Shown here piece by piece: positions 712 to 11,590 of a DNA stretch of 64,000 nt (the first letter of the stretch is position 1; every line of letters begins with the position of its first letter). The notes under the pieces were generated by a model. That model made no database searches. It saw nothing but the letters and a program-made list of their open reading frames with translations, and was not told the origin of the DNA. The DNA comes from Crocinitomicaceae bacterium (GTDB lineage Bacteria; Bacteroidota; Bacteroidia; Flavobacteriales_D; Crocinitomicaceae). The stretch lies in assembly GCA_021740745.1 (NCBI GenBank), contig JAIOZF010000001.1:62001-126000 (forward strand), given 5' to 3'. The position numbers and the translations under genes were made by a program.

Positions 712-2007
712 ATGAGGGATAACGCCAACTATTCAAAAAAAGAAAATGACGATTTAGAAGGAACACCCAGATATACTTCAAACTCAAAATTAGGTATAGG
801 CGTTACTGAACACCTATTTAATAAATCAATGAGAGACTTAACAAGTATTGGCGCAATGTCTCAGCTAGCAAAGCAACAAAACGCAATTAGAGAAATGATA
901 AAGATGCCCATTTCAAATACTTTAAAGGCATTATCCGCAGCAAGTATCATTTCAGAAATGTCAAAACATCAAAACGCTTTGAGGGAGAAGTATAATCACA
1001 TATTTAGCTTTCAAGACGCAATTCGAGAATTGTCCAAATCAGCACTTAGAGACATTTCGGATAATTCTGCATCATCCATCATTCTGGGAGGATCTGCAGC
1101 AAGCGCTCTTGCAAGACTAAAATATGAAAATTCTGGTGGGTTCAATCCCACCTCTTCCGCATTGAATTTTATAACATCTAATCCCAACTTATTCAACAAA
1201 CAAGTTTCAATCTTCGAAAAGCTAAACAAACATTTTCATGAGATAAATCAATTGAGTACTCCTTCATGGTTGGAACAAATTAGTTCTACTAAGGATTACT
1301 CAAAAGCAACTGCACTTTCTGCATTTGAAATTATAAGCGCAAACACACTTAGTCAAATCATAGGTGAATATCCTGACGAGCAGAATATTGAAAATCCGGA
1401 GGATGAGCTTGATAAAATGAGTTCGCTTATTCAAGAAAATAAGGCGTTGAAATTAGAAATAGAAAAGCTCCTAAAAAAAATAGCTTGTCCAACAAAGAGT
1501 AAAAGCTTAAAAAAACAATTGGCAGAACTTGAAGAGCCAATCAAGCAATTTTCGCATTATGTTCATCTGAACTTATTCAAATGCTCTGAAAAATGGACAT
1601 TAAGGACAACACACTATTTCATTTCTCTAGTGAGTTATCTTATTATTAGCATATATCTTTCTAAAAAACTAGAAAACCTCTTTTTTACTGATACTTCACC
1701 CACCCAAACAATTTTCAACAATAATGATGTAAATATTGACAACAGAAGAACCATTAATGTCTACGGATTTGACAACACTACCTTATGGGGACTAACTTCT
1801 AAAGATCTCAAGGTTTACCAAAGAAAAAGTGTGAAAACTAATTGCATTGGAATGGTTCTCTTTAAAACAACAGTTAGAATTTTAAGAAAGAAGGGGGAAT
1901 GGCTTTTTATTGAATCGGTAATTACCAAGTTCGACAAAAAAACCAAAGAGGAAGTCGAATTCGTTTCGAGAGGATGGGTCAAAAAAGATGCAATAGTATT
2001 TGAGTAA
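712..2007 (+). CDS. Hypothetical protein with repetitive N-terminal helical region, one TM segment and SH3-like C-terminal domain
   Basis: 431-aa ORF. N-terminal recurring 'QNAIREM / QNALREK / QDAIREL' motifs; TM 'YFISLVSYLIISIYL'; C-terminal 'GMVLFKTTVRILRKKGEWLFIES...SRGWVKKDAI' resembles bacterial SH3. Confidence 0.6.
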   Translation: MRDNANYSKKENDDLEGTPRYTSNSKLGIGVTEHLFNKSMRDLTSIGAMSQLAKQQNAIREMIKMPISNTLKALSAASIISEMSKHQNALREKYNHIFSFQDAIRELSKSALRDISDNSASSIILGGSAASALARLKYENSGGFNPTSSALNFITSNPNLFNKQVSIFEKLNKHFHEINQLSTPSWLEQISSTKDYSKATALSAFEIISANTLSQIIGEYPDEQNIENPEDELDKMSSLIQENKALKLEIEKLLKKIACPTKSKSLKKQLAELEEPIKQFSHYVHLNLFKCSEKWTLRTTHYFISLVSYLIISIYLSKKLENLFFTDTSPTQTIFNNNDVNIDNRRTINVYGFDNTTLWGLTSKDLKVYQRKSVKTNCIGMVLFKTTVRILRKKGEWLFIESVITKFDKKTKEEVEFVSRGWVKKDAIVFE

Positions 2008-2016
2008 AAATAAAGG

Positions 2017-3000
2017 ATGAAAGATCATCATAAAACAATCGATTTTACCGATGCCCTCCGTTATGGTATACCGGTTCATATTAATGAAGTGCAGAATGGT
2101 ATAAAATGCAATTGTATTTGTCCGTCTTGCAAGCAACCTCTTGTCGCTTACAATAATCCCAAGAACAAAAAGGCACACCACTTTCAACATCAAAGTTTAA
2201 GTAATTGTAAAAACTACTACGAAACGATGATTCACTATTGGGCTAAAGAAATTATTAATGAACAAAGAGAGCTATCCGTTCCAAATCATGATTTTGAATT
2301 GAGCGATTACGCAAGGGGCTATACAGATTATGAATGGAGCAAAGATTTTCCCAAGGAAAAGATAACTGCTGCCAAAGTCGAATTCGATAAAATTCTTATT
2401 GAAAAGCATCAAGACGGCATTAAACCCGATTTAATATGCTTTGTAAAGAATAGGAAAATTCATGTTGAGATTGCTGTGACACACTTTATTGATGAATTGA
2501 AAGCTATTAAAATAGAGAATCTCAATGTCACTAGTTTAGAAATTGATTTATCAACTGTTGATCGTTCATTACAAAAAGAAAAATTGAAAAATATTCTTTC
2601 CAATGGAAATATTGAGCGAATGACATGGTTTAACAACAAGGCAATAAAACAGAAAAAAGCGTTAAGCGATCAACGGAAATCAACTATCAGAATATTCATT
2701 CTTTCAAATATGATTGAAAAAAAAGTATATGGTAAGGCCAAAAATGTTTATAAATGCCCTTTGTTTAAAACTGAACACGACGTTACACTTCATAATTGTG
2801 AGAGATGTCAATATCTAGTATACACGAATGAAATCTACGAAGGATCACAAGAACAATATGACAACAAAGAAACAATTTACCCCAAAGTAAGTATTAATTG
2901 TATTGGTCACATTGCTTCAAAATTTGATGCTCTTCTAATTGCCAACGAGATAACTGTTAGAGAAAATAAAGCCTTCAATAGAGGAGTTACTTCAAGGTGA
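2017..3000 (+). CDS. CoiA-like protein (Zn-binding N-terminus plus putative PD-(D/E)XK-like nuclease)
   Basis: 327 aa. 'CNCICPSCKQPLVAYNNPKNKKAHHFQHQS..NCKNYYETMIHYWAKE' resembles the CoiA N-terminus; 'GIKPDLICFVKNRKIHVEIAVTH' resembles a nuclease core. Starts 9 nt after the upstream gene. Confidence 0.6.
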   Translation: MKDHHKTIDFTDALRYGIPVHINEVQNGIKCNCICPSCKQPLVAYNNPKNKKAHHFQHQSLSNCKNYYETMIHYWAKEIINEQRELSVPNHDFELSDYARGYTDYEWSKDFPKEKITAAKVEFDKILIEKHQDGIKPDLICFVKNRKIHVEIAVTHFIDELKAIKIENLNVTSLEIDLSTVDRSLQKEKLKNILSNGNIERMTWFNNKAIKQKKALSDQRKSTIRIFILSNMIEKKVYGKAKNVYKCPLFKTEHDVTLHNCERCQYLVYTNEIYEGSQEQYDNKETIYPKVSINCIGHIASKFDALLIANEITVRENKAFNRGVTSR

Positions 3001-3245: not shown

Positions 3246-5462
3246 TTATGCTGCTCTTTCAATATGGATAACTCTTGTTACATATGTATCTCCTGTTTCG
3301 TTCAATATACTATTATATGGATCTCCTCCACCTAATTCATCTATTATCTCAATAACAACCGCAAAATCCTGCTCAAATTCAGAATCTAATTTACCTCTAA
3401 CCCAACAACGAACACGTAATTCCCATTCTCCACAAGAATATGATCGGGTAAAGGTTTTTTCGATTTGTTGAATCGGACTCCAAAAAGCCTCCGTTTTATC
3501 GTCAGCACTAAAGGAAACACGTTTTTTATTAGACGACGCATCCAGCTTGTCTAATGCAATGGATACTTTCGATTGAACATAATTTACAGGATCTCTAAAG
3601 TTGACAGGTGGGTTGGAAACAACTGTGATTTTTATTTTTAGTTTGCTTTCAGGATTCTCACTCGCTAACATAGCTGGAATATGAAACTTGAGAATCTTGA
3701 ATTGATCATTTTTTACTTTTCCTTCAAACAGGTAAGATGCAGAATGATTTACAGCATTTACCGCTCGTTCATAATTAGGCGCACCAAATCCTACTTGATA
3801 TTCTTTCCCAATTCCTAAAACAGGATGATGGTCAATAATGTCAGTAAAGTGAATTAGCAAAGCTTTAATTAGATTTACAGATTTATCTGTATAATATTTG
3901 AATAATCTAGCTGCTATTTGGCTAACAATCGGAGCTGAAAAGCTAGTCCCGTTGTCTGTTGCTAAATGTCTCCCTGAATGGAAAAGTCCGCTAGCAGAAA
4001 TTCTAGCAAATGGAGCGTAATTAGACATTAAATTTCCACCGTGATGTACAAGCTCAGGTTTTAGTGCTGCGTTTACTCCTGGTCCACGTCTCGAAAATGG
4101 AGATAGCTGGTTATTCCGAGAAAGGGACCCAGGGTCACTATATTTGGCATATGCACCTACTGTTAATCCAAGGACACTTTCTGCAGGAGAACAAATTCGT
4201 GCTTGAGGTGAAATAAAATGATCACCTGGAAATTCTCCAAGCGAGGTTCTAATATTGCCTGAAGCAATAATAAATAATAGATCAAATTCTCTTGAAAGAG
4301 CATCTATAGAATACGCTGATAGAGAATAATTATAGTCATCAATAGGAGTGTTTTCACCCAAAGAAAGGTTAATTACTCGAGCTTGACCTTTATATGCCTT
4401 TGCTACAGCGTTTAGTATTTCACTCAACTGCGTCCTATTTGGACCAATAATCCTTTCTACACCGTCAAGATCCGTTGTTACTCCAAATACAGCAACATCA
4501 ATAATATTACAATAGGATTGTACATTTCCAGAAGCGACTATTCGATCTAATTCATCACCAAAAGAAACTCGGCTTGCCACAAACGTTCCATGATTATATT
4601 CAGGAACTGTTGCTCCCTCTGGAAGTGACTGAGCTGAATGTACTACACAATTTTGCATTATACCTGAAAGCGATACACCGGAATCAATAATGATTACAGA
4701 TGGATTTTCTGAATCATATACAACATTAAGTTGCTGGGTTATTTCAATTGAAGGAATGGATTGGGTAATAATTGACGGTGGGTTAAGCTCTACGGATTGA
4801 ATTAGATTAAATGTGTCACTAATATTAATAATTTTCTCAACTTCAGTCGAAATCGATATTGCACAAAAGAGATCATCGAATACTAATTTTTGAATCTTGT
4901 GAGCCTCTACCTGGTATTCGCTTTTTAATAAACCTATTATCAAATCCATTTTTTCCTCATTTGCCTCTTCATGAAGATTAAGAATAGTGTCAATTGAATT
5001 GTTTTCGCTATCTAAATTCTGGAAGCGAAATTTATCTTCGGAGGCAACTGGGGAAAGACTCTCTATGTATTTAAGATATGATTTAAGTGGATTTTTCGGA
5101 TCAGAAGTATAATTCCTAATCTTTTCGTTCAACTCGCTAAATTCATTCTTTTTGATAGAAACAATTCCTTTGGATTCATTTAATGGATCAATACTCGTAA
5201 CATGAATTCCCAAATGCTCTAAAGAACTTTTGATGGCTTTCAATGGAACATTATCAGGAGCTTGGATTTTAGAATAAACATTAGTGCTGTAAACAATATC
5301 CTTTTTGGTTTCTAAAGCAGTTCTTAATTGAGAAATTTCCCCGTAAATCCGTCTACCGTGTGATGAATAATTCTCTCTTACAAAAGTAGTTCCGCCGCTT
5401 CCTTTTCTAACTGTTTCGTTAGCCGTTTTTGAAGTAGGGATAAAAAAATGTGGTCTGTCCAT
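3246..5462 (-). CDS. S8 (subtilisin-like) serine peptidase with about 240-aa N-terminal extension
   Basis: Asp motif 'VIIIDSGVSLSG', His motif 'NHGTFVAS', 'IIASGN', Ser motif 'NGTSFSAPIVSQIA'. Confidence 0.9.
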   Translation of the reverse strand: MDRPHFFIPTSKTANETVRKGSGGTTFVRENYSSHGRRIYGEISQLRTALETKKDIVYSTNVYSKIQAPDNVPLKAIKSSLEHLGIHVTSIDPLNESKGIVSIKKNEFSELNEKIRNYTSDPKNPLKSYLKYIESLSPVASEDKFRFQNLDSENNSIDTILNLHEEANEEKMDLIIGLLKSEYQVEAHKIQKLVFDDLFCAISISTEVEKIINISDTFNLIQSVELNPPSIITQSIPSIEITQQLNVVYDSENPSVIIIDSGVSLSGIMQNCVVHSAQSLPEGATVPEYNHGTFVASRVSFGDELDRIVASGNVQSYCNIIDVAVFGVTTDLDGVERIIGPNRTQLSEILNAVAKAYKGQARVINLSLGENTPIDDYNYSLSAYSIDALSREFDLLFIIASGNIRTSLGEFPGDHFISPQARICSPAESVLGLTVGAYAKYSDPGSLSRNNQLSPFSRRGPGVNAALKPELVHHGGNLMSNYAPFARISASGLFHSGRHLATDNGTSFSAPIVSQIAARLFKYYTDKSVNLIKALLIHFTDIIDHHPVLGIGKEYQVGFGAPNYERAVNAVNHSASYLFEGKVKNDQFKILKFHIPAMLASENPESKLKIKITVVSNPPVNFRDPVNYVQSKVSIALDKLDASSNKKRVSFSADDKTEAFWSPIQQIEKTFTRSYSCGEWELRVRCWVRGKLDSEFEQDFAVVIEIIDELGGGDPYNSILNETGDTYVTRVIHIERAA

Positions 5463-5518
5463 AGTGAATAGTGACTTGCTAGGCGCTTGAGCACAAATAT
5501 GTTAAATAATATTAGAAC

Positions 5519-5563
5519 AACAACCTGTATCCTCTTAGATAATTCAAGAAGATACAGGTTGTT
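5519..5563. repeat. Strong hairpin between the DUF6527-like gene and the subtilase gene
   Basis: aacaacctgtatcctctt (5519-5536) / aagaagatacaggttgtt (5546-5563): 18-bp stem with one mismatch, 9-nt loop, no clear T-tract. Confidence 0.8.
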
Positions 5564-5578
5564 AATTGTAATACGGCA

Positions 5579-5959
5579 TTAATCTTGAGCCCACTCAACT
5601 TTCCCTTTACGAATGAAAAAGTGGCTTTTACAACCTACGGTGCGCCATACAGATGGAGAAATCGTTATTTTGTTTCTATCGGTATTATACCTCCATAAGG
5701 GCTTTGAGTCTTCTAAAAGATTTAATTCAATAATTGAATCGCAACCACAAGGGCAAACAAAACTAAGCGATTCATCAATGTACCCTTCGTTGAGGATGTA
5801 AATACAATCTTTATTAGGTAATTCCGGAATTTCACTAATGATAGAAAATCGGAACTCTTCACTATCCTGTTCTGGAACTTGAACTTTCCCGGAACAAGCA
5901 GGAGGTGCCGGTCTAAAGAAACTTCTAAGCCAGTACCATAATTTCATTAACAACTTCAT
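5579..5959 (-). CDS. DUF6527-like putative metal-binding protein
   Basis: 126 aa with 'SFVCPCGCDSIIELNLL...ISPSVWRTVGCKSHFFIRKGKVEW', matching remembered DUF6527 pattern. 4-nt overlap (ATGA) with upstream E1 gene. Confidence 0.7.
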   Translation of the reverse strand: MKLLMKLWYWLRSFFRPAPPACSGKVQVPEQDSEEFRFSIISEIPELPNKDCIYILNEGYIDESLSFVCPCGCDSIIELNLLEDSKPLWRYNTDRNKITISPSVWRTVGCKSHFFIRKGKVEWAQD

Positions 5960-7353
5960 GATAATTCTGGCATTCGTAAAAATGGCGAACAGTCACCGCG
6001 GCCAGTCCATTTTAGGGAAACATCGTCAGTTTCGAAATCTTCTTCTGGAGTATTTTCAATACATCCTCCACAAAAATCCATCATTACTTTAGCATAGTCG
6101 CCTGGTCCTTCATCCTTGAAAGGATGAAGTCGATTTAGAAGTTCGTTGACCGCCATACTGCTGATTTGCATATTTATACTTATCACGGCTGGACTATTTA
6201 CATTCGCATTATGTACATACCCAACTTTTTCCCGTTCTGCGAATTCTTCAGGCATCTGACGTTTAAGACCATCATCAAATAAACGTTTGTCGGTATAAAG
6301 ACCTCTGCTCATTAAAGACGACTTACCAGGTTGGATATAATGGACACTTGCAACTATGCTTTTAATACCGCCAGTTCCATCAGCATCTAATCTTACACCT
6401 ATATCGAAGTATGGAATCAAATAGAAATTAGAAAGCTGGGAAAGCAGATGACGACCGTCAACACTATCCATACAGCCGATCAAGACGTCGCATGTTATCA
6501 ATTCCTTCAATAGATCTAAATTATCATACAAATTAACCGCATAAGGTGTAATCTTTGTTTTCAAGCCTTGGCTTTTGACAGCTTCTGCAATTACTTCTAC
6601 CTTTGATATTCCCACGTCAACCATTCTAGAATTAACAATTCTATTGAGGTTCTTAACTTCAATTTCATCTGGATCCATTATGACAAGTTCTCCAACCCCT
6701 AGTCTAACCAATTGTTCAATAGTTGGACTTCCTGTTCCAGAACAACCAACGACACCTATTTTTAATTGTTTCAGCTTGTTATAAGTTCCTTCCCCAAATG
6801 CCTGTATTGTACGTAAAGAAAATTCATCCGTATGATTTTCTTTATCTCTGCCCCATATAAGTATTTCATCTCCAGAAACAGATATCTTACTGACCATTTC
6901 AGAATTTAAATCAGGGCCAAATACTCTGGCAAAGATCTCTCCAGTTGGAAGCATAACTGCAGACATATGAACCCCATCATAATCACACCATCCAAAAACA
7001 GATCTGAATAGGTCATGATCTGATTGATCATCAGTTTCAGAAAAGTCCGGGTATCCAGTTGGGTGCGAATGAATCTTTAGAATTGCCATATTCTTTTTAG
7101 CTGCTTCTTCCAATACTGGAACGAGCCTGTCGGTTTTCCAGTTTACATGCACTGGTGTTCGCTCACACTCTTCATGTGGTATTGGAACTAATTTATGTGT
7201 AAGTAGCATAGAGGTCTCTTCGTGCTCGTACCTACCACATAGTACAATCGCAACGGCTTCCTTCCCATCACCAGGGAAAAGATGTTCTTTTATAGAAGAA
7301 TAGTGGTTGCCCGATAATCTAAGCTGAAACTCCATGGTACGGGCGTTTATCAA
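5956..7353 (-). CDS. JAB/JAMM peptidase - E1-like (ThiF) fusion protein
   Basis: N-terminal JAMM 'KIHSHPTGYPDFSETDD' (HxH-x7-SxxD); C-terminal E1 nucleotide-binding 'IGVVGCSGTGSPTIEQLVRLGVGELVIMDPDEIEVKNLNR' and 'DVLIGCMDSVDGR'. Confidence 0.9.
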   Translation of the reverse strand: MINARTMEFQLRLSGNHYSSIKEHLFPGDGKEAVAIVLCGRYEHEETSMLLTHKLVPIPHEECERTPVHVNWKTDRLVPVLEEAAKKNMAILKIHSHPTGYPDFSETDDQSDHDLFRSVFGWCDYDGVHMSAVMLPTGEIFARVFGPDLNSEMVSKISVSGDEILIWGRDKENHTDEFSLRTIQAFGEGTYNKLKQLKIGVVGCSGTGSPTIEQLVRLGVGELVIMDPDEIEVKNLNRIVNSRMVDVGISKVEVIAEAVKSQGLKTKITPYAVNLYDNLDLLKELITCDVLIGCMDSVDGRHLLSQLSNFYLIPYFDIGVRLDADGTGGIKSIVASVHYIQPGKSSLMSRGLYTDKRLFDDGLKRQMPEEFAEREKVGYVHNANVNSPAVISINMQISSMAVNELLNRLHPFKDEGPGDYAKVMMDFCGGCIENTPEEDFETDDVSLKWTGRGDCSPFLRMPELS

Positions 7354-8056
7354 ATTCCTGCAATAACCATGTATCTACTAGTGGTACATGAGTTCCCAAG
7401 TTGTCAATTCCTGGTCGCCAGGGGTTAACTGGTGTTCTATGACGTGACCATCGCTGAAAAATACGACCGTCAATATTCATGTTAGCCAAAGCTCCTATCG
7501 GTTGCTGATCTGTTCTCTGAAGAGGAGGATAAAAATAAGCCATATCCAACTGGGCTGTAGGATAACCTGGACTCATTAACACAGCTACAGTAACATTTTC
7601 AAAATTATATCCCTTTGGAACAGAATAGCCGTGAATAAGAACCCAATTCTGGTTTCCTTGCTTAATGGTTTCCCACTTCAGACCAAGTGTATCCAAGTAC
7701 TCTTGATCTTCCTCAAGCAGAGTGAATCCCCTCTGCGGGGATTCACCTTCTGTTTGATCACATGCAAGTGTTTTGAACTTTTCAACACCAGGTTCAGTGA
7801 AACAAACCACCTGATCGTTTTTGATTGTCACAACTCTACCATCCTTAAATTTCTGGCGGAGTTGGTATCGCTCAGGTGGAGTTTCTCCTGTTAGAGATAA
7901 AATCTCTTTCCCTGTCATACACTCTTTATCAACAACATAGTTCTTACGGTCAATTAGAATGCGATATTTTTTGCCTTTTGGGGCGGTGTGTCCGCATTTT
8001 GCACACCATTCGAGATCAATTATCTCATCGTTTAAACTGAAATTCGGATCCATCAT
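7319..8056 (-). CDS. Ubiquitin-like (Multi_ubiq-type) - E2-like (Prok-E2_E-type) fusion protein
   Basis: N-terminal CxxC (WCAKCGH), Ubl-like 'KKYRILIDRKNYVVDKECMTGKEILSLTGETPPERYQLRQKFKDGRVVTIKNDQVVCFTEPGVEKFKTL', then 'WVLIHGYSVPKGYNFENVTVAVLMSPGYPTAQLDMAYFYPPLQR...DGRIFQRWSRHR..VNPWRPGIDNLGTHVPLVDTWL' (prokaryotic E2-like). Overlaps the E1 gene by 35 nt. Confidence 0.85.
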   Translation of the reverse strand: MMDPNFSLNDEIIDLEWCAKCGHTAPKGKKYRILIDRKNYVVDKECMTGKEILSLTGETPPERYQLRQKFKDGRVVTIKNDQVVCFTEPGVEKFKTLACDQTEGESPQRGFTLLEEDQEYLDTLGLKWETIKQGNQNWVLIHGYSVPKGYNFENVTVAVLMSPGYPTAQLDMAYFYPPLQRTDQQPIGALANMNIDGRIFQRWSRHRTPVNPWRPGIDNLGTHVPLVDTWLLQEFDKRPYHGVSA

Positions 8057-8143
8057 CTACAATTTTAATGGATGTAACATTCCTCCGATTCTTTAAGATA
8101 GCACGGGAGGCTACAACTATCCAGACAGGATAGTTCCGTAAAC

Positions 8144-8174
8144 TTGCAGGGTTTAAAAAAAACACCTTTATTTG
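8144..8174 (+). promoter_or_regulatory. Putative Bacteroidota promoter of the small transcript
   Basis: TTG at 8144-8146, 20-nt spacer, TTTATTTG at 8167-8174 (one mismatch to TAnnTTTG). Confidence 0.4.
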
Positions 8175-8179
8175 CATAC

Positions 8180-8284
8180 GAAACTAGAAGGGAAGCAACA
8201 AGGTGATAAGCCTTGTGAGGTCTACGAATCTTTTATCCCTTAATAACTCAGTCATCTGCGCCAACAGAAGGCTGAGTTTTTTTG
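8180..8284 (+). ncRNA. Putative structured small RNA divergent from the Ubl operon
   Basis: AAGGGA (8188-8193)/TCCCTT (8236-8241) enclosing ACAAGG-tgataag-CCTTGT (8198-8216), followed by an AACTCAG/CTGAGTT hairpin with 7-nt T-tract ending 8283. No convincing ORF. Confidence 0.4.
8245..8283 (+). terminator. Intrinsic terminator of the putative small RNA
   Basis: aactcag (8245-8251) ... tctg/caga inner stem ... ctgagtt (8272-8278) then TTTTT. Confidence 0.7.
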
Positions 8285-8349
8285 TTTTATCGGCTTATAC
8301 TTTTTTCTTTAAAATACATAATCAACTAATTACAAATGCAATATTAAGC

Positions 8350-8423
8350 AATCTAATTCTATCAAGCAAGAATTTGATAAAATTTTCTATGTAAATTTTT
8401 CTCTTGCTTGATAGAATTAGATT
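8350..8423. promoter_or_regulatory. Perfect 22-bp inverted repeat upstream of XRE gene (probable operator)
   Basis: aatctaattctatcaagcaaga (8350-8371) / tcttgcttgatagaattagatt (8402-8423), 30-nt spacer. Confidence 0.75.
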
Positions 8424-8455: not shown

Positions 8456-8797
8456 ATGGAAACTCTAGGAAAAACACTGAAAAGCGCTCGAGAAGGATTG
8501 TCTTTAACTCTAAGAGAAATTGAAACAGAAACTGGTATATCGAATGCTTATTTAAGTCAATTAGAAAACGAAAAGATTAAAAAACCATCTGCAAGTATCC
8601 TTTACAAGTTAGCGGCTGCTTATAAGATTGAGCTTAATGATCTTCTTCGTGCGGCTGGTATAATTACCCAACGTCTAGAAGAAAAAGATGAAATGAGTGA
8701 ATTGGAAAAAGAAATTGCTTTTTATAAAAGCCATTTATCAGAAGATGAACAACGACAAGTTGTTACATTTATGAAATTCTTAAAAAGTCAAGGATAA
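8456..8797 (+). CDS. XRE-family HTH transcriptional regulator
   Basis: 'LGKTLKSAREGLSLTLREIETETGISNAYLSQLENEKIKKPSASILYKLAAAYKIELNDLLRAAG' is a classic HTH_3. Confidence 0.95.
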   Translation: METLGKTLKSAREGLSLTLREIETETGISNAYLSQLENEKIKKPSASILYKLAAAYKIELNDLLRAAGIITQRLEEKDEMSELEKEIAFYKSHLSEDEQRQVVTFMKFLKSQG

Positions 8798-8798
8798 A

Positions 8799-9680
8799 GT
8801 GCTTAATTCGCATACCAAAAAGGATATTGAAAAGATATCCATGGATATCTTAAAATCATCTCGTTCTTTAGATGTATTTCCTACACCGATTGATCAAATT
8901 GTTAAATACTCAGATTTGATAGTTGCGGGAGGTATTGACGTAAAGTCAATTCAAAACAGATTTAAAGACTTTTTTCTACCTGAAGCTCTAATCTCTGGAT
9001 TAAGTAAAATCCGCGGATTCCTTGATCGATCTGAGAAGTTAATCTATTTGGATTTGACTCAAAATAATGGAAGACAAGGATTTGTGAAGCTTCATGAAAC
9101 TGGTCATAATGTTCTTCCTTGGCAAAAACTAATTCTGCAATTTGTAGATGATGATAACACATTGGATGCAACAACTAAAGATGAATTTGAGGCCGAAGCA
9201 AATTATTTTGCATCAGCAACTCTGTTTCAAAATGATCGATTCAATAGAGAATCAAAAAAGTATGAATTAGGCATTCCTGGAGCTTTACAACTTGCAAAAC
9301 ATTTTGGTGCTTCAGGTCACGCCGCCTTAAGACGATATGTAGAAATAAATGATGCACGCTGCATGCTACTAGTAATTGAAGGACTTTCTCCTAAAGGCAT
9401 CATTTTGAATGGAAAGTTGAGGAATACTTTTTACTCTTCATCTTTTTTAAATGAATTTGGAAAAATCACGATGCCAAATAACTTTGATTTCAAATGGTCA
9501 TTTATGCAGGATTATTGTTTCGGCAAAAGAATGAAGTTGGATGGTTCAATTGATTTAATTGTAAATGGAGAAATGATAGAATTCTGTTATCATTTCTTTA
9601 ATAACTCTTTTAATGTATTTGTTCTAATTTTCCCGAAAGGAGAAAATAAAAAAACGAAAACGAAAATCATCATTCGATGA
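8799..9680 (+). CDS. ImmA/IrrE-type (M78-like) metallopeptidase
   Basis: 'GFVKLHETGHNVLPWQ' HExxH motif, later 'EFEAEANYFASATL'; immediately follows the XRE gene. Confidence 0.85.
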   Translation: MLNSHTKKDIEKISMDILKSSRSLDVFPTPIDQIVKYSDLIVAGGIDVKSIQNRFKDFFLPEALISGLSKIRGFLDRSEKLIYLDLTQNNGRQGFVKLHETGHNVLPWQKLILQFVDDDNTLDATTKDEFEAEANYFASATLFQNDRFNRESKKYELGIPGALQLAKHFGASGHAALRRYVEINDARCMLLVIEGLSPKGIILNGKLRNTFYSSSFLNEFGKITMPNNFDFKWSFMQDYCFGKRMKLDGSIDLIVNGEMIEFCYHFFNNSFNVFVLIFPKGENKKTKTKIIIR

Positions 9681-9729: not shown

Positions 9730-10533
9730 TTAAGGTTTAGTAGGCCTTTTTATATTCTCATCTTTCTGGTAATCTAGTATTTTACCTATCCTTTCTGCCC
9801 TAAACCAACGTTTATTAATTTGATGTTTCTTTCCATCTGGAAATTCCATATAATCTGAAATAATTTGGTTCATAAATTCAGTTAGTTCAGGCCCTACCCC
9901 TTTGGTTAATTTATCTTTGAACTTAGATAAATCAATGTTATATATTTCACAAATAAAAGCAACCATAACTAAATAATTAGAGTCGGAATTTGTACAATTC
10001 CCAATATAATTAAGTGATATTTTATCACCGGGATTCGGCTTTTCTTTTTTAACCATATTGCTAAATGCTTTTAAACTTGATTGCAAAGTTCCTCTTAGTT
10101 TATATTCATTATGTTGATATGCTATCTCTGAATCAGCATATTCAGGTAAAGTTATTTCCAGAATTTTCATTTCTAGTTTTTGATTTCTTTTTTGAATCAT
10201 TAGTTTTTTGCCCTTTTCACTCCAAAGAAATATCATGAAAGCGAAAAGAAGTCCTGATGGGATGAATGAATTTAATGACAACACATTCAATTTGTCAAAA
10301 TAAAAAATAAGTGCCCAAATTAAAATGTAAGCACATGAAAAAATAGATAGGATAATTTTAGTGTATCCAATCCTATACCTCTCAATTAAATCCATTTTTA
10401 ATTTTTCCTGTAAAGTTGCATTTTCAACACTTTCCAGTTTTCTATATAAAACAACAATTAGAAAAGGAATCCACGGAAGAATCAACACAAATATGGATAT
10501 TACTATGTACATTTCACTCTTCATAAAACTCAA
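9730..10533 (-). CDS. Hypothetical membrane protein
   Basis: 267 aa, N-terminal TM 'IVISIFVLILPWIPFLIVVLY' and further hydrophobic segments; start overlaps the integrase end by 20 nt. Confidence 0.65.
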   Translation of the reverse strand: MSFMKSEMYIVISIFVLILPWIPFLIVVLYRKLESVENATLQEKLKMDLIERYRIGYTKIILSIFSCAYILIWALIFYFDKLNVLSLNSFIPSGLLFAFMIFLWSEKGKKLMIQKRNQKLEMKILEITLPEYADSEIAYQHNEYKLRGTLQSSLKAFSNMVKKEKPNPGDKISLNYIGNCTNSDSNYLVMVAFICEIYNIDLSKFKDKLTKGVGPELTEFMNQIISDYMEFPDGKKHQINKRWFRAERIGKILDYQKDENIKRPTKP

Positions 10534-11590
10534 TTATTGGTAACGAATTAATTGCTTTATCTTTCAATTCTTCTATGTGATTCAAATACTTCACTGTATG
10601 CAAAGTGCTTGTCTGACCCATACAATCAGACACTGTCTTTAAATTTGCTCCATTCATTAATAATAAAGTGGCATAACTGTGTCTTGCACAATAGAAAGTA
10701 ATATGTTTGTCAATACCTGCTCTTTTTACCCAAGAATGCAGATTCTTATTAATCCCATTTGTTGTCAGGTTCACTTCAAAAACTAAGTCTTTCTTCAGCC
10801 TTGGTGGTCCAGCTAAATTAAGTATCTGTTGGCTTAATGGAATATTTATTTCAATTCCTGTTTTTACACGTCTAGTATTTAATCTTCCCCCAGCCAAATT
10901 TTCCCAATAAAGCTCTTTCAAATCAGCAATGCCTAAACCAGTATATGAACAAAACAAAAACATTTTTTTTACCAATGGATTGGGGCATGGGGTCACTGCT
11001 AAAAGACGCAATTCGTCTGCTGTTAAAACTTCTTTACGAAGTGTACTTTTATTGTTCCCATTTTTATAAATAATTCCTTGAGCTGGATTGATTTTCAAAT
11101 AACCTTCAGACACTGCCGCCTTGACAACTTTTTTGAAACGAGAAAAATAATTTTTTGGAGTTTCTCCAGACAAACTAACTTCATCTGATCTTAAATAGTC
11201 TAAATAATCTTCACAAACTTTTGTAGTCAATCTTGATACGCCAAATCGTTGCCCGCCGACAAAGTTGGCAAAATGCCGCACCGCGCAAATTATCATACGT
11301 TTATCTTTGCTTTTGTATTTTAAGATGTAGCTTTCACAGTATTCAAGGAAATCTATCTTGTTTCGGTGCTTTGGAACATAATCTGTGCCTCCAGCAATCA
11401 ATTCAAGTTCAATATTGTTTCGAATCTGTTTTGCAATATCCAGTTTTTCTTTTCGAGAATTGCTATCATCTTTTTTTGAATTTATTATAATGTTCAAAAA
11501 TTGATAGCTTCTTTCTCCGTCATGATAAATATCTAAATACAGACTTTTTCCACCACTCTTCAATTTCTTTTCTCGCAAAATTACTGACAT
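10514..11590 (-). CDS. Tyrosine recombinase / phage-type integrase
   Basis: 358 aa: SAM-like core-binding region, 'YTGLGIADLKELYWENL', 'HSWVKRAGIDKHITFYCARHSYATLLL', 'LNHIEELKD'. Confidence 0.9.
   Translation of the reverse strand: MSVILREKKLKSGGKSLYLDIYHDGERSYQFLNIIINSKKDDSNSRKEKLDIAKQIRNNIELELIAGGTDYVPKHRNKIDFLEYCESYILKYKSKDKRMIICAVRHFANFVGGQRFGVSRLTTKVCEDYLDYLRSDEVSLSGETPKNYFSRFKKVVKAAVSEGYLKINPAQGIIYKNGNNKSTLRKEVLTADELRLLAVTPCPNPLVKKMFLFCSYTGLGIADLKELYWENLAGGRLNTRRVKTGIEINIPLSQQILNLAGPPRLKKDLVFEVNLTTNGINKNLHSWVKRAGIDKHITFYCARHSYATLLLMNGANLKTVSDCMGQTSTLHTVKYLNHIEELKDKAINSLPIIEFYEE

What the first reader, a model, noticed from the sequence alone, without database searches (positions are those of the whole stretch)
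3246..8056. Ubiquitin-like conjugation operon: Ubl-E2 fusion, JAMM-E1 fusion, DUF6527-like protein and subtilase on a mobile island
Seen in sequence: four co-directional genes. The first three overlap (35 nt and 4 nt), which suggests translational coupling. Motifs: Multi_ubiq-like plus Prok-E2_E-like domains in one protein; JAMM HxH-x7-SxxD plus a ThiF/E1 Rossmann motif in another; a CPCGC...GCKSHF protein; and a complete S8 catalytic triad. Established: bacterial Ubl/E2/E1/JAB operons (Bil/Bub-type, first outlined by comparative genomics) include anti-phage systems. Inference: this is a compact defence variant with fused components and a subtilase.
Basis: partly seen in the sequence, partly recalled or inferred. 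Interest (0 to 1): 0.88.

Follow-up and report, generated by a model that had tools for sequence, protein, structure and literature searches.

The report
Ubiquitin-like operon beside IetS-like protease
This is a known kind of bacterial ubiquitin-like tagging operon (a 'Bub' operon) on a mobile island; what looks new is that such operons repeatedly sit beside an anti-phage-type protease, and that a group of them starts with an undescribed folded RNA.

Summary
Four intact minus-strand genes lie at 3246-8056: Multi_ubiq/Prok-E2_E fusion, JAB-E1 fusion, DUF6527 protein and a subtilase with a complete triad. The first three are a textbook Bub operon (operon type 6e of Iyer 2006; Citrobacter BubB and BubCD are solved), with the known Bub regulators CapH+CapP divergent upstream. 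The E2-like domain lacks the catalytic cysteine. That part is a new member of a known kind.

The subtilase is not part of the standard operon. It is an IetS relative (PADLOC E=1e-89) without its IetA ATPase, 116 bp downstream, behind a terminator-like hairpin. In 79 Bub loci from public genomes, 78 have Ubl/E2, 78 DUF6527, but only 10 have an IetS-type protease within 6 kb (9 with IetA). Ten is far above chance, and the E1 tree needs at least 6 changes, so the association arose repeatedly. In three phyla IetA-IetS-Ubl-E2-E1-DUF6527 look like one operon (22-26 bp gaps).

It recurs in front of 13 other Bub operons and matches nothing in Rfam.

Defence function is inferred, not shown.

The parts
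7319..8056 (-). Ubl-E2 fusion (BubA-BubB type): Multi_ubiq Ubl domain + Prok-E2_E domain without catalytic Cys
   Evidence: Pfam; PDB 9eav/9eae Citrobacter BubB E=4e-29; no conserved Cys in the E2 domain, S204 and the WSRH motif invariant in 21 relatives
5956..7353 (-). JAB-E1 fusion (BubCD type); probable start ATG at 7335 rather than TTG 7353
   Evidence: Pfam; PDB 9ea4 Citrobacter BubCD E=4e-74 over residues 13-464; JAMM residues 80/80
5579..5959 (-). DUF6527 protein, predicted zinc site C-x3-C-x36-C-x2-H
   Evidence: Pfam; C69, P70, C110, H113 invariant and C71, C73 nearly so in 49 relatives; AF2 pLDDT 87, no significant PDB fold match
5513..5567 (-). hairpin between DUF6527 and the subtilase, terminator-like
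   Evidence: fold: MFE -35.6, z -4.8, 0 of 200 shuffles as low
3246..5462 (-). IetS-like S8 subtilase without an IetA partner; triad D260/H291/S507 intact
   Evidence: PADLOC IetS E=1e-89; NCBIfam IteS 232 bits, below its cut-off of 900; relatives; Foldseek matches subtilases E=1e-19
8066..8296 (-). conserved structured leader RNA upstream of Ubl-E2 (core 8194-8294): two-part hairpin with TGGC loop, a small hairpin, and a hairpin whose loop can pair with the 5' GCYGAT end
   Evidence: no Rfam family
8350..8423 (.). perfect 22-nt inverted repeat between the divergent genes; candidate CapH operator
8456..8797 (+). CapH-type HTH (XRE) repressor
   Evidence: Pfam HTH_19 E=1e-14; homologues divergent to Bub operons in L016, L019, L029, L101
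8799..9680 (+). CapP-type metallopeptidase (IrrE/M78, HETGH)
   Evidence: Pfam Peptidase_M78 E=1e-9; PADLOC capP E=1e-20
10514..11590 (-). tyrosine recombinase of the mobile island
   Evidence: Pfam Phage_integrase E=1e-16 and Arm-DNA-bind_5

Best explanation
The core (5579-8056) is a Bub operon. The JAB domain is expected to free the Ubl from its E2 fusion and to reverse conjugates. The ThiF-type E1 adenylates the Ubl C-terminus. The cysteine-less E2 passes it to targets, by my recollection through ester rather than thioester intermediates. DUF6527, a predicted zinc protein, is the best candidate for a target-recognition or helper subunit. CapH+CapP would keep the operon silent until DNA damage. 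A folded leader RNA of about 225 nt sets expression of the conjugation genes. The IetS-type subtilase is a recurrent accessory that acts in the same response, most likely by cleaving or degrading proteins that the pathway has marked or activated. In most linked loci an AAA ATPase (IetA) would feed it; in this small subfamily it works without one. Shown here: gene content, motifs, regulators, RNA structure by covariation, recurrent linkage. Inferred: enzyme chemistry, regulation, the link between tagging and proteolysis, any role against phage.
For: Domain and structure matches. Layout identical to Bub operons from several phyla. CapH+CapP divergent here; CapP within 4 kb in 28 of 79 related loci, in line with published Bub regulation (PMC13373217). 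IetS within 6 kb of 10 of 79 Bub loci against 0.014 expected from its genome frequency; P about 3e-9 even if defence islands raised the density 50-fold. At least 6 label changes forced on the E1 tree, and several IetS lineages involved. IetA-IetS-Ubl gaps of 22-26 bp in Planctomycetota, Verrucomicrobiota and Acidobacteriota. One IetAS clade and the same leader RNA occur with both JAB-type (L028, L044, L066) and DUF6791-type (L115) Bub operons. The lone S8 clade (100/99 support) has 3 members: two beside Bub in different gene orders (window, L032), the third cut off at a contig end (L113).
Against: 69 of 79 Bub loci lack the subtilase, and of the Bacteroidota IetS loci inspected in full only L115 has a Bub operon, so each works alone somewhere. 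In the window the S8 lies behind a hairpin and could be a separate unit. Only two lone-S8/Bub pairs are known. No wet evidence. Published work has not shown phage protection by Bub operons.
Confidence: 0.5

Rival explanations
1. The subtilase is an independent lone IetS-type defence gene that shares the mobile island with a Bub operon; the two do not work together.
For: Terminator-like hairpin and 116-bp gap; most Bub loci lack S8; IetAS exists without Bub in L114, L116, L117, L118, L121, L122; defence genes cluster in islands.
Against: Association about 700 times above genome-wide expectation, repeated on the E1 tree; operon-like 22-26 bp gaps in three phyla; both lone-S8 genes with usable context lie beside Bub; the leader RNA starts 9-36 nt after the IetS stop in five loci.
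Confidence: 0.38
2. The S8 gene is a decaying remnant of an IetAS pair that has lost IetA.
For: No dedicated IetA in the genome; the best AAA matches are other AAA proteins.
Against: The 738-aa frame is open with the full triad; two relatives at 37% and 32% identity also lack IetA, so the lone form is old and maintained.
Confidence: 0.07
3. The operon is a general DNA-damage response or plasmid/island maintenance module and not an anti-phage system.
For: Phage protection has not been shown for Bub operons; the authors themselves raise global stress response as an alternative (PMC13373217).
Against: Linkage to IetS-type genes, family resemblance to Bil and CBASS, and location on mobile elements next to Abi genes.
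Confidence: 0.3

Closest known systems
Bub operons (Gong 2025; Ye 2026; PDB 9EA4, 9EA5, 9EAE, 9EAV) = operon type 6e of Iyer, Burroughs and Aravind 2006 (PMC1779556)
   Same: Ubl, cysteine-less E2-like domain, JAB-E1 fusion, small zinc-binding DUF6527 protein in this order; CapH+CapP beside it; on mobile elements
   Different: single Ubl fused to the E2 (a reported variant); S8 subtilase downstream; structured leader RNA not described in anything I could read
IetAS anti-phage pair (PADLOC IetS; NCBIfam NF042956)
   Same: S8 subtilase of the same length and domain layout, intact triad
   Different: no IetA; about 25-36% identity; far below the NCBIfam cut-off; beside a Bub operon
Bil (BilABCD) and type II CBASS Cap2/Cap3
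   Same: E1/E2/JAB-based conjugation of small proteins
   Different: here the E2 domain has no conserved cysteine, the JAB is fused to the E1, and there is no CD-NTase or other known CBASS effector among the flanking ORFs

Membership tests
Bub / type 6e operon | Multi_ubiq Ubl domain(s) | tested here: met
   PF14452 E=8e-9, above cut-off
Bub / type 6e operon | Prok-E2_E domain lacking the catalytic cysteine, fused to Ubl or separate | tested here: met
   PF14462 E=1e-36; BubB structure match; no conserved Cys in 21 relatives
Bub / type 6e operon | E1 with N-terminal JAB (or the alternative domain X/DUF6791) | tested here: met
Bub / type 6e operon | small metal-binding protein, C-x3-C-x(35-38) then a second Cys/His pair | tested here: met
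   C69-x3-C73-x36-C110-x2-H113; PF20137. The order of the last pair (C then H) is opposite to the printed signature.
Bub / type 6e operon | Ubl conjugation activity | not testable with these tools
   needs biochemistry
IetAS | IetS-type S8 protease | tested here: met
   PADLOC PDLC02197 E=1e-89
IetAS | NCBIfam IteS equivalog cut-off (900 bits) | tested here: not met
   232 bits
IetAS | partner AAA ATPase IetA | tested here: not met
   none beside the gene and none in the genome above the level of other AAA proteins; assembly 96% complete
Bil | E2 with catalytic cysteine and separate E1 and JAB proteins | tested here: not met
   no Cys in the E2 domain; JAB and E1 fused
CapH+CapP regulated immune operon | divergent HTH and IrrE-type peptidase pair | tested here: met
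   8456-9680
Rfam family (leader RNA) | match to a described RNA family | tested here: not met

The most novel reading that the evidence does not exclude
Bub conjugation and IetAS form one pathway in some bacteria: a ubiquitin-like tag, an AAA ATPase and a protease unrelated to the proteasome, i.e. a separately evolved tag-unfold-degrade system encoded in one operon, with an undescribed regulatory RNA between or ahead of the modules. In the lone-S8 branch the protease acts without the ATPase.
Probability: 0.25. Interest if true: 0.88.

Novelty: new variant of a known kind. Interest (0 to 1): 0.62.

Why it matters
What happens to proteins tagged by Bub pathways is not known, and neither are the substrates of IetS. 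Repeated physical linkage of a tagging operon to an ATPase-protease pair makes a direct, testable proposal: tagged proteins are the substrate or the trigger. If true, bacteria built a ubiquitin-to-protease route independently of the proteasome. The covarying leader RNA adds a second handle, since regulatory RNAs on bacterial immune operons are rarely described.

Tried and rejected
A special compact fusion variant: rejected, Ubl-E2 and JAB-E1 fusions are common among relatives. S8 as a standard operon member: rejected (10 of 79). Missing IetA elsewhere in the genome: only other AAA proteins found. Leader as a protein-coding or known RNA: no Rfam match; the sequence-only motif search found it only in near relatives, profile and covariance searches were needed. 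RNAalifold on the raw alignment mis-registered the first hairpin; stems were then located per sequence. Viral contigs: no relatives of the Ubl-E2 or lone S8; 37 pattern hits for the leader were chance. DUF6527 fold comparison gave no significant match. The S8 model has low confidence (pLDDT 62); only its subtilase fold is used. Promoter-like and terminator-like scans were near shuffle level and not used. The key Bub papers (PMC12885553, PMC12145246) are not held.
Full report
OBSERVATION. The Ubl-E2 protein matches Multi_ubiq and Prok-E2_E; the second matches Prok-JAB and ThiF; the third is DUF6527; the fourth is a Peptidase_S8. The overlap of Ubl-E2 and JAB-E1 is probably 17 nt, not 35, because relatives begin at the equivalent of the ATG at 7335. 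The subtilase is separated from DUF6527 by 116 bp containing a hairpin with a long uninterrupted stem (MFE -35.6 kcal/mol, z -4.8), so translational coupling does not extend to it.

CORE OPERON. Genes 1-3 are a Bub operon. The E2-like domain aligns with solved Citrobacter BubB (E=4e-29), the JAB-E1 protein with Citrobacter BubCD over its whole length (E=4e-74). Iyer et al. 2006 (PMC1779556) described this layout as type 6e: Ubl domains, sometimes fused to an E2/RWD-like domain without the cysteine, JAB-E1, and a zinc-finger-like protein with C-x3-C-x(35-38) spacing. The window has C69-x3-C73-x36-C110-x2-H113. JAMM residues are invariant in 80 relatives. The E2 domain has no conserved cysteine; S204 in the WSRH motif is invariant in 21 relatives. 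From memory, Ye et al. 2026 reported ester rather than thioester intermediates; I could not read that paper.

REGULATION. Divergently upstream are an XRE-type HTH (8456-8797) and an IrrE/M78 peptidase with HETGH (8799-9680; PADLOC capP E=1e-20). This is the CapH+CapP pair, which according to PMC13373217 controls neighbouring immune operons in response to DNA damage; there 219 of 544 Bub operons had CapW or CapH+CapP. A perfect 22-nt inverted repeat at 8350-8423 is a candidate operator.

NEIGHBOURHOOD SURVEY. A genome scan with the E1 alignment gave 79 distinct loci, the best of 374 candidates. Profile searches of all six frames: Ubl/E2 in 78, DUF6527 in 78, CapP within 4 kb in 28, IetS-type protease within 6 kb in 10, IetA in 9. 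IetS occurs in 19 of 396 sampled Bacteroidota genomes, which predicts 0.014 loci by chance; P(>=10) is 6e-26, or 3e-9 if density near Bub is raised 50-fold. This null uses Bacteroidota density for all phyla and is rough. On the E1 tree the label needs 7 changes, at least 6 forced by supported branches. Three loci have IetS-Ubl gaps of 22, 24 and 26 bp (L063, L077, L062). L115, found through its IetS and not through Bub, carries IetA-IetS followed by triple Multi_ubiq, DUF6791-ThiF and DUF6527. In the other direction, L114, L116, L117, L118, L121 and L122 have IetAS without Bub.

THE LONE SUBTILASE. The window S8 forms a supported clade with L032 and L113 (100/99; 37% and 32% identity), all without an adjacent IetA. 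L032 has it directly upstream of a Ubl-E2 gene, the window directly downstream of DUF6527, and L113 is cut at a contig end. A search for IetA in the three genomes finds only AAA proteins at about 125 bits or less, against about 370-500 for true IetA in my profiles. So the loss of IetA is old and the linkage to Bub survives rearrangement, but it rests on two cases. The structure model is low in confidence and only confirms a subtilase fold.

LEADER RNA. Comparing intergenic regions showed a conserved element of about 225 nt immediately upstream of Ubl-E2 (window 8066-8296). A profile from six seeds found it in L033, L029, L035 and L034, which were not seeds. Its parts: a 5' GCYGAT(AA); a hairpin with outer stem, internal loop, inner stem and TGGC loop; a small hairpin; and a hairpin GAGG[CTTATCA]CCTC. 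The loop of the last can pair with the 5' end, and this pairing co-varies: TGATAA/TTATCA (L029, L034), TGATCAA/TTGATCA (L015), TGATTCA/TGAATCA (L028); it is weak in L044/L049 and poor in L066. A covariance model searched over 1.6 Mb in 84 sources gave 14 matches, including the seeds, and every one lies just upstream of the Ubl gene of a Bub operon. The independent hits are L115 (E=6e-10, in the DUF6791-type operon) and L067 (E=0.024, weak). Pair counts: 44 two-sided changes against 16.5 in shuffles and at most 16 in slid controls; 15 of 18 pairs with two-sided changes. The alignment is fitted to the structure, which favours it, but the stems were first seen in single sequences. No Rfam family matches. 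In genome searches only the window's own copy was found: 1 of 126 relatives and 1 of 134 genomes of the phylum sample, with strict filters. In five IetAS-linked loci the core starts 9-36 nt after the IetS stop, so there it sits between the two modules.

MECHANISM. Most likely: DNA damage or infection relieves CapH; the operon is expressed under control of the leader; JAB frees Ubl; E1 and the cysteine-less E2 conjugate it; DUF6527 assists; the subtilase acts on the products. Steps after transcription of the genes are inferred. That the subtilase belongs to the same response is supported by repeated linkage only.

NOVELTY. The core is a new member of a known kind. The recurrent IetAS-Bub linkage, the IetA-less branch and the leader RNA are, as far as I could check, undescribed; the two main Bub papers were not readable here, so prior description cannot be excluded. 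Overall: new variant of a known kind.

Noticed in passing
window 8066-8296, minus strand; also L015, L028-L031, L033-L035, L044, L049, L066, L115 (weak L067): Undescribed structured leader RNA in front of Bub operons, with strong covariation, a possible pseudoknot and no Rfam match.
   Followed up: yes
L115 5149-11132: IetA-IetS followed by the same leader RNA and a DUF6791-type (JAB-less) Bub operon: the same IetAS clade combined with another Bub type.
   Followed up: partly
L032 3305-11733: Chryseosolibacter histidini has two different Bub operons back to back, with an ECF-like sigma factor gene, a 99-aa ORF and the lone S8 between them.
   Followed up: partly
IetA proteins in alignment A4: IetAs of L044, L028, L066, L115, L019, L062 and L077 carry a C-terminal extension (HTH-like by weak Pfam hits in L115) that is missing or short in the four IetAs taken from loci without Bub.
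   Followed up: partly
window 712-3000, plus strand: Two genes of unknown function converge on the subtilase: one weakly CoiA/restriction-nuclease-like (2017-3000), one without a significant match (712-2007).
   Followed up: no
window 9730-10533, minus strand: Probable membrane protein with a weak SLATT-like match (E=0.004), between CapP and the integrase.
   Followed up: no
L017 8619-10028: JAB-E1 frame of the Mesorhizobium sp. 131-3-5 Bub operon contains an in-frame stop, possibly a broken copy.
   Followed up: no
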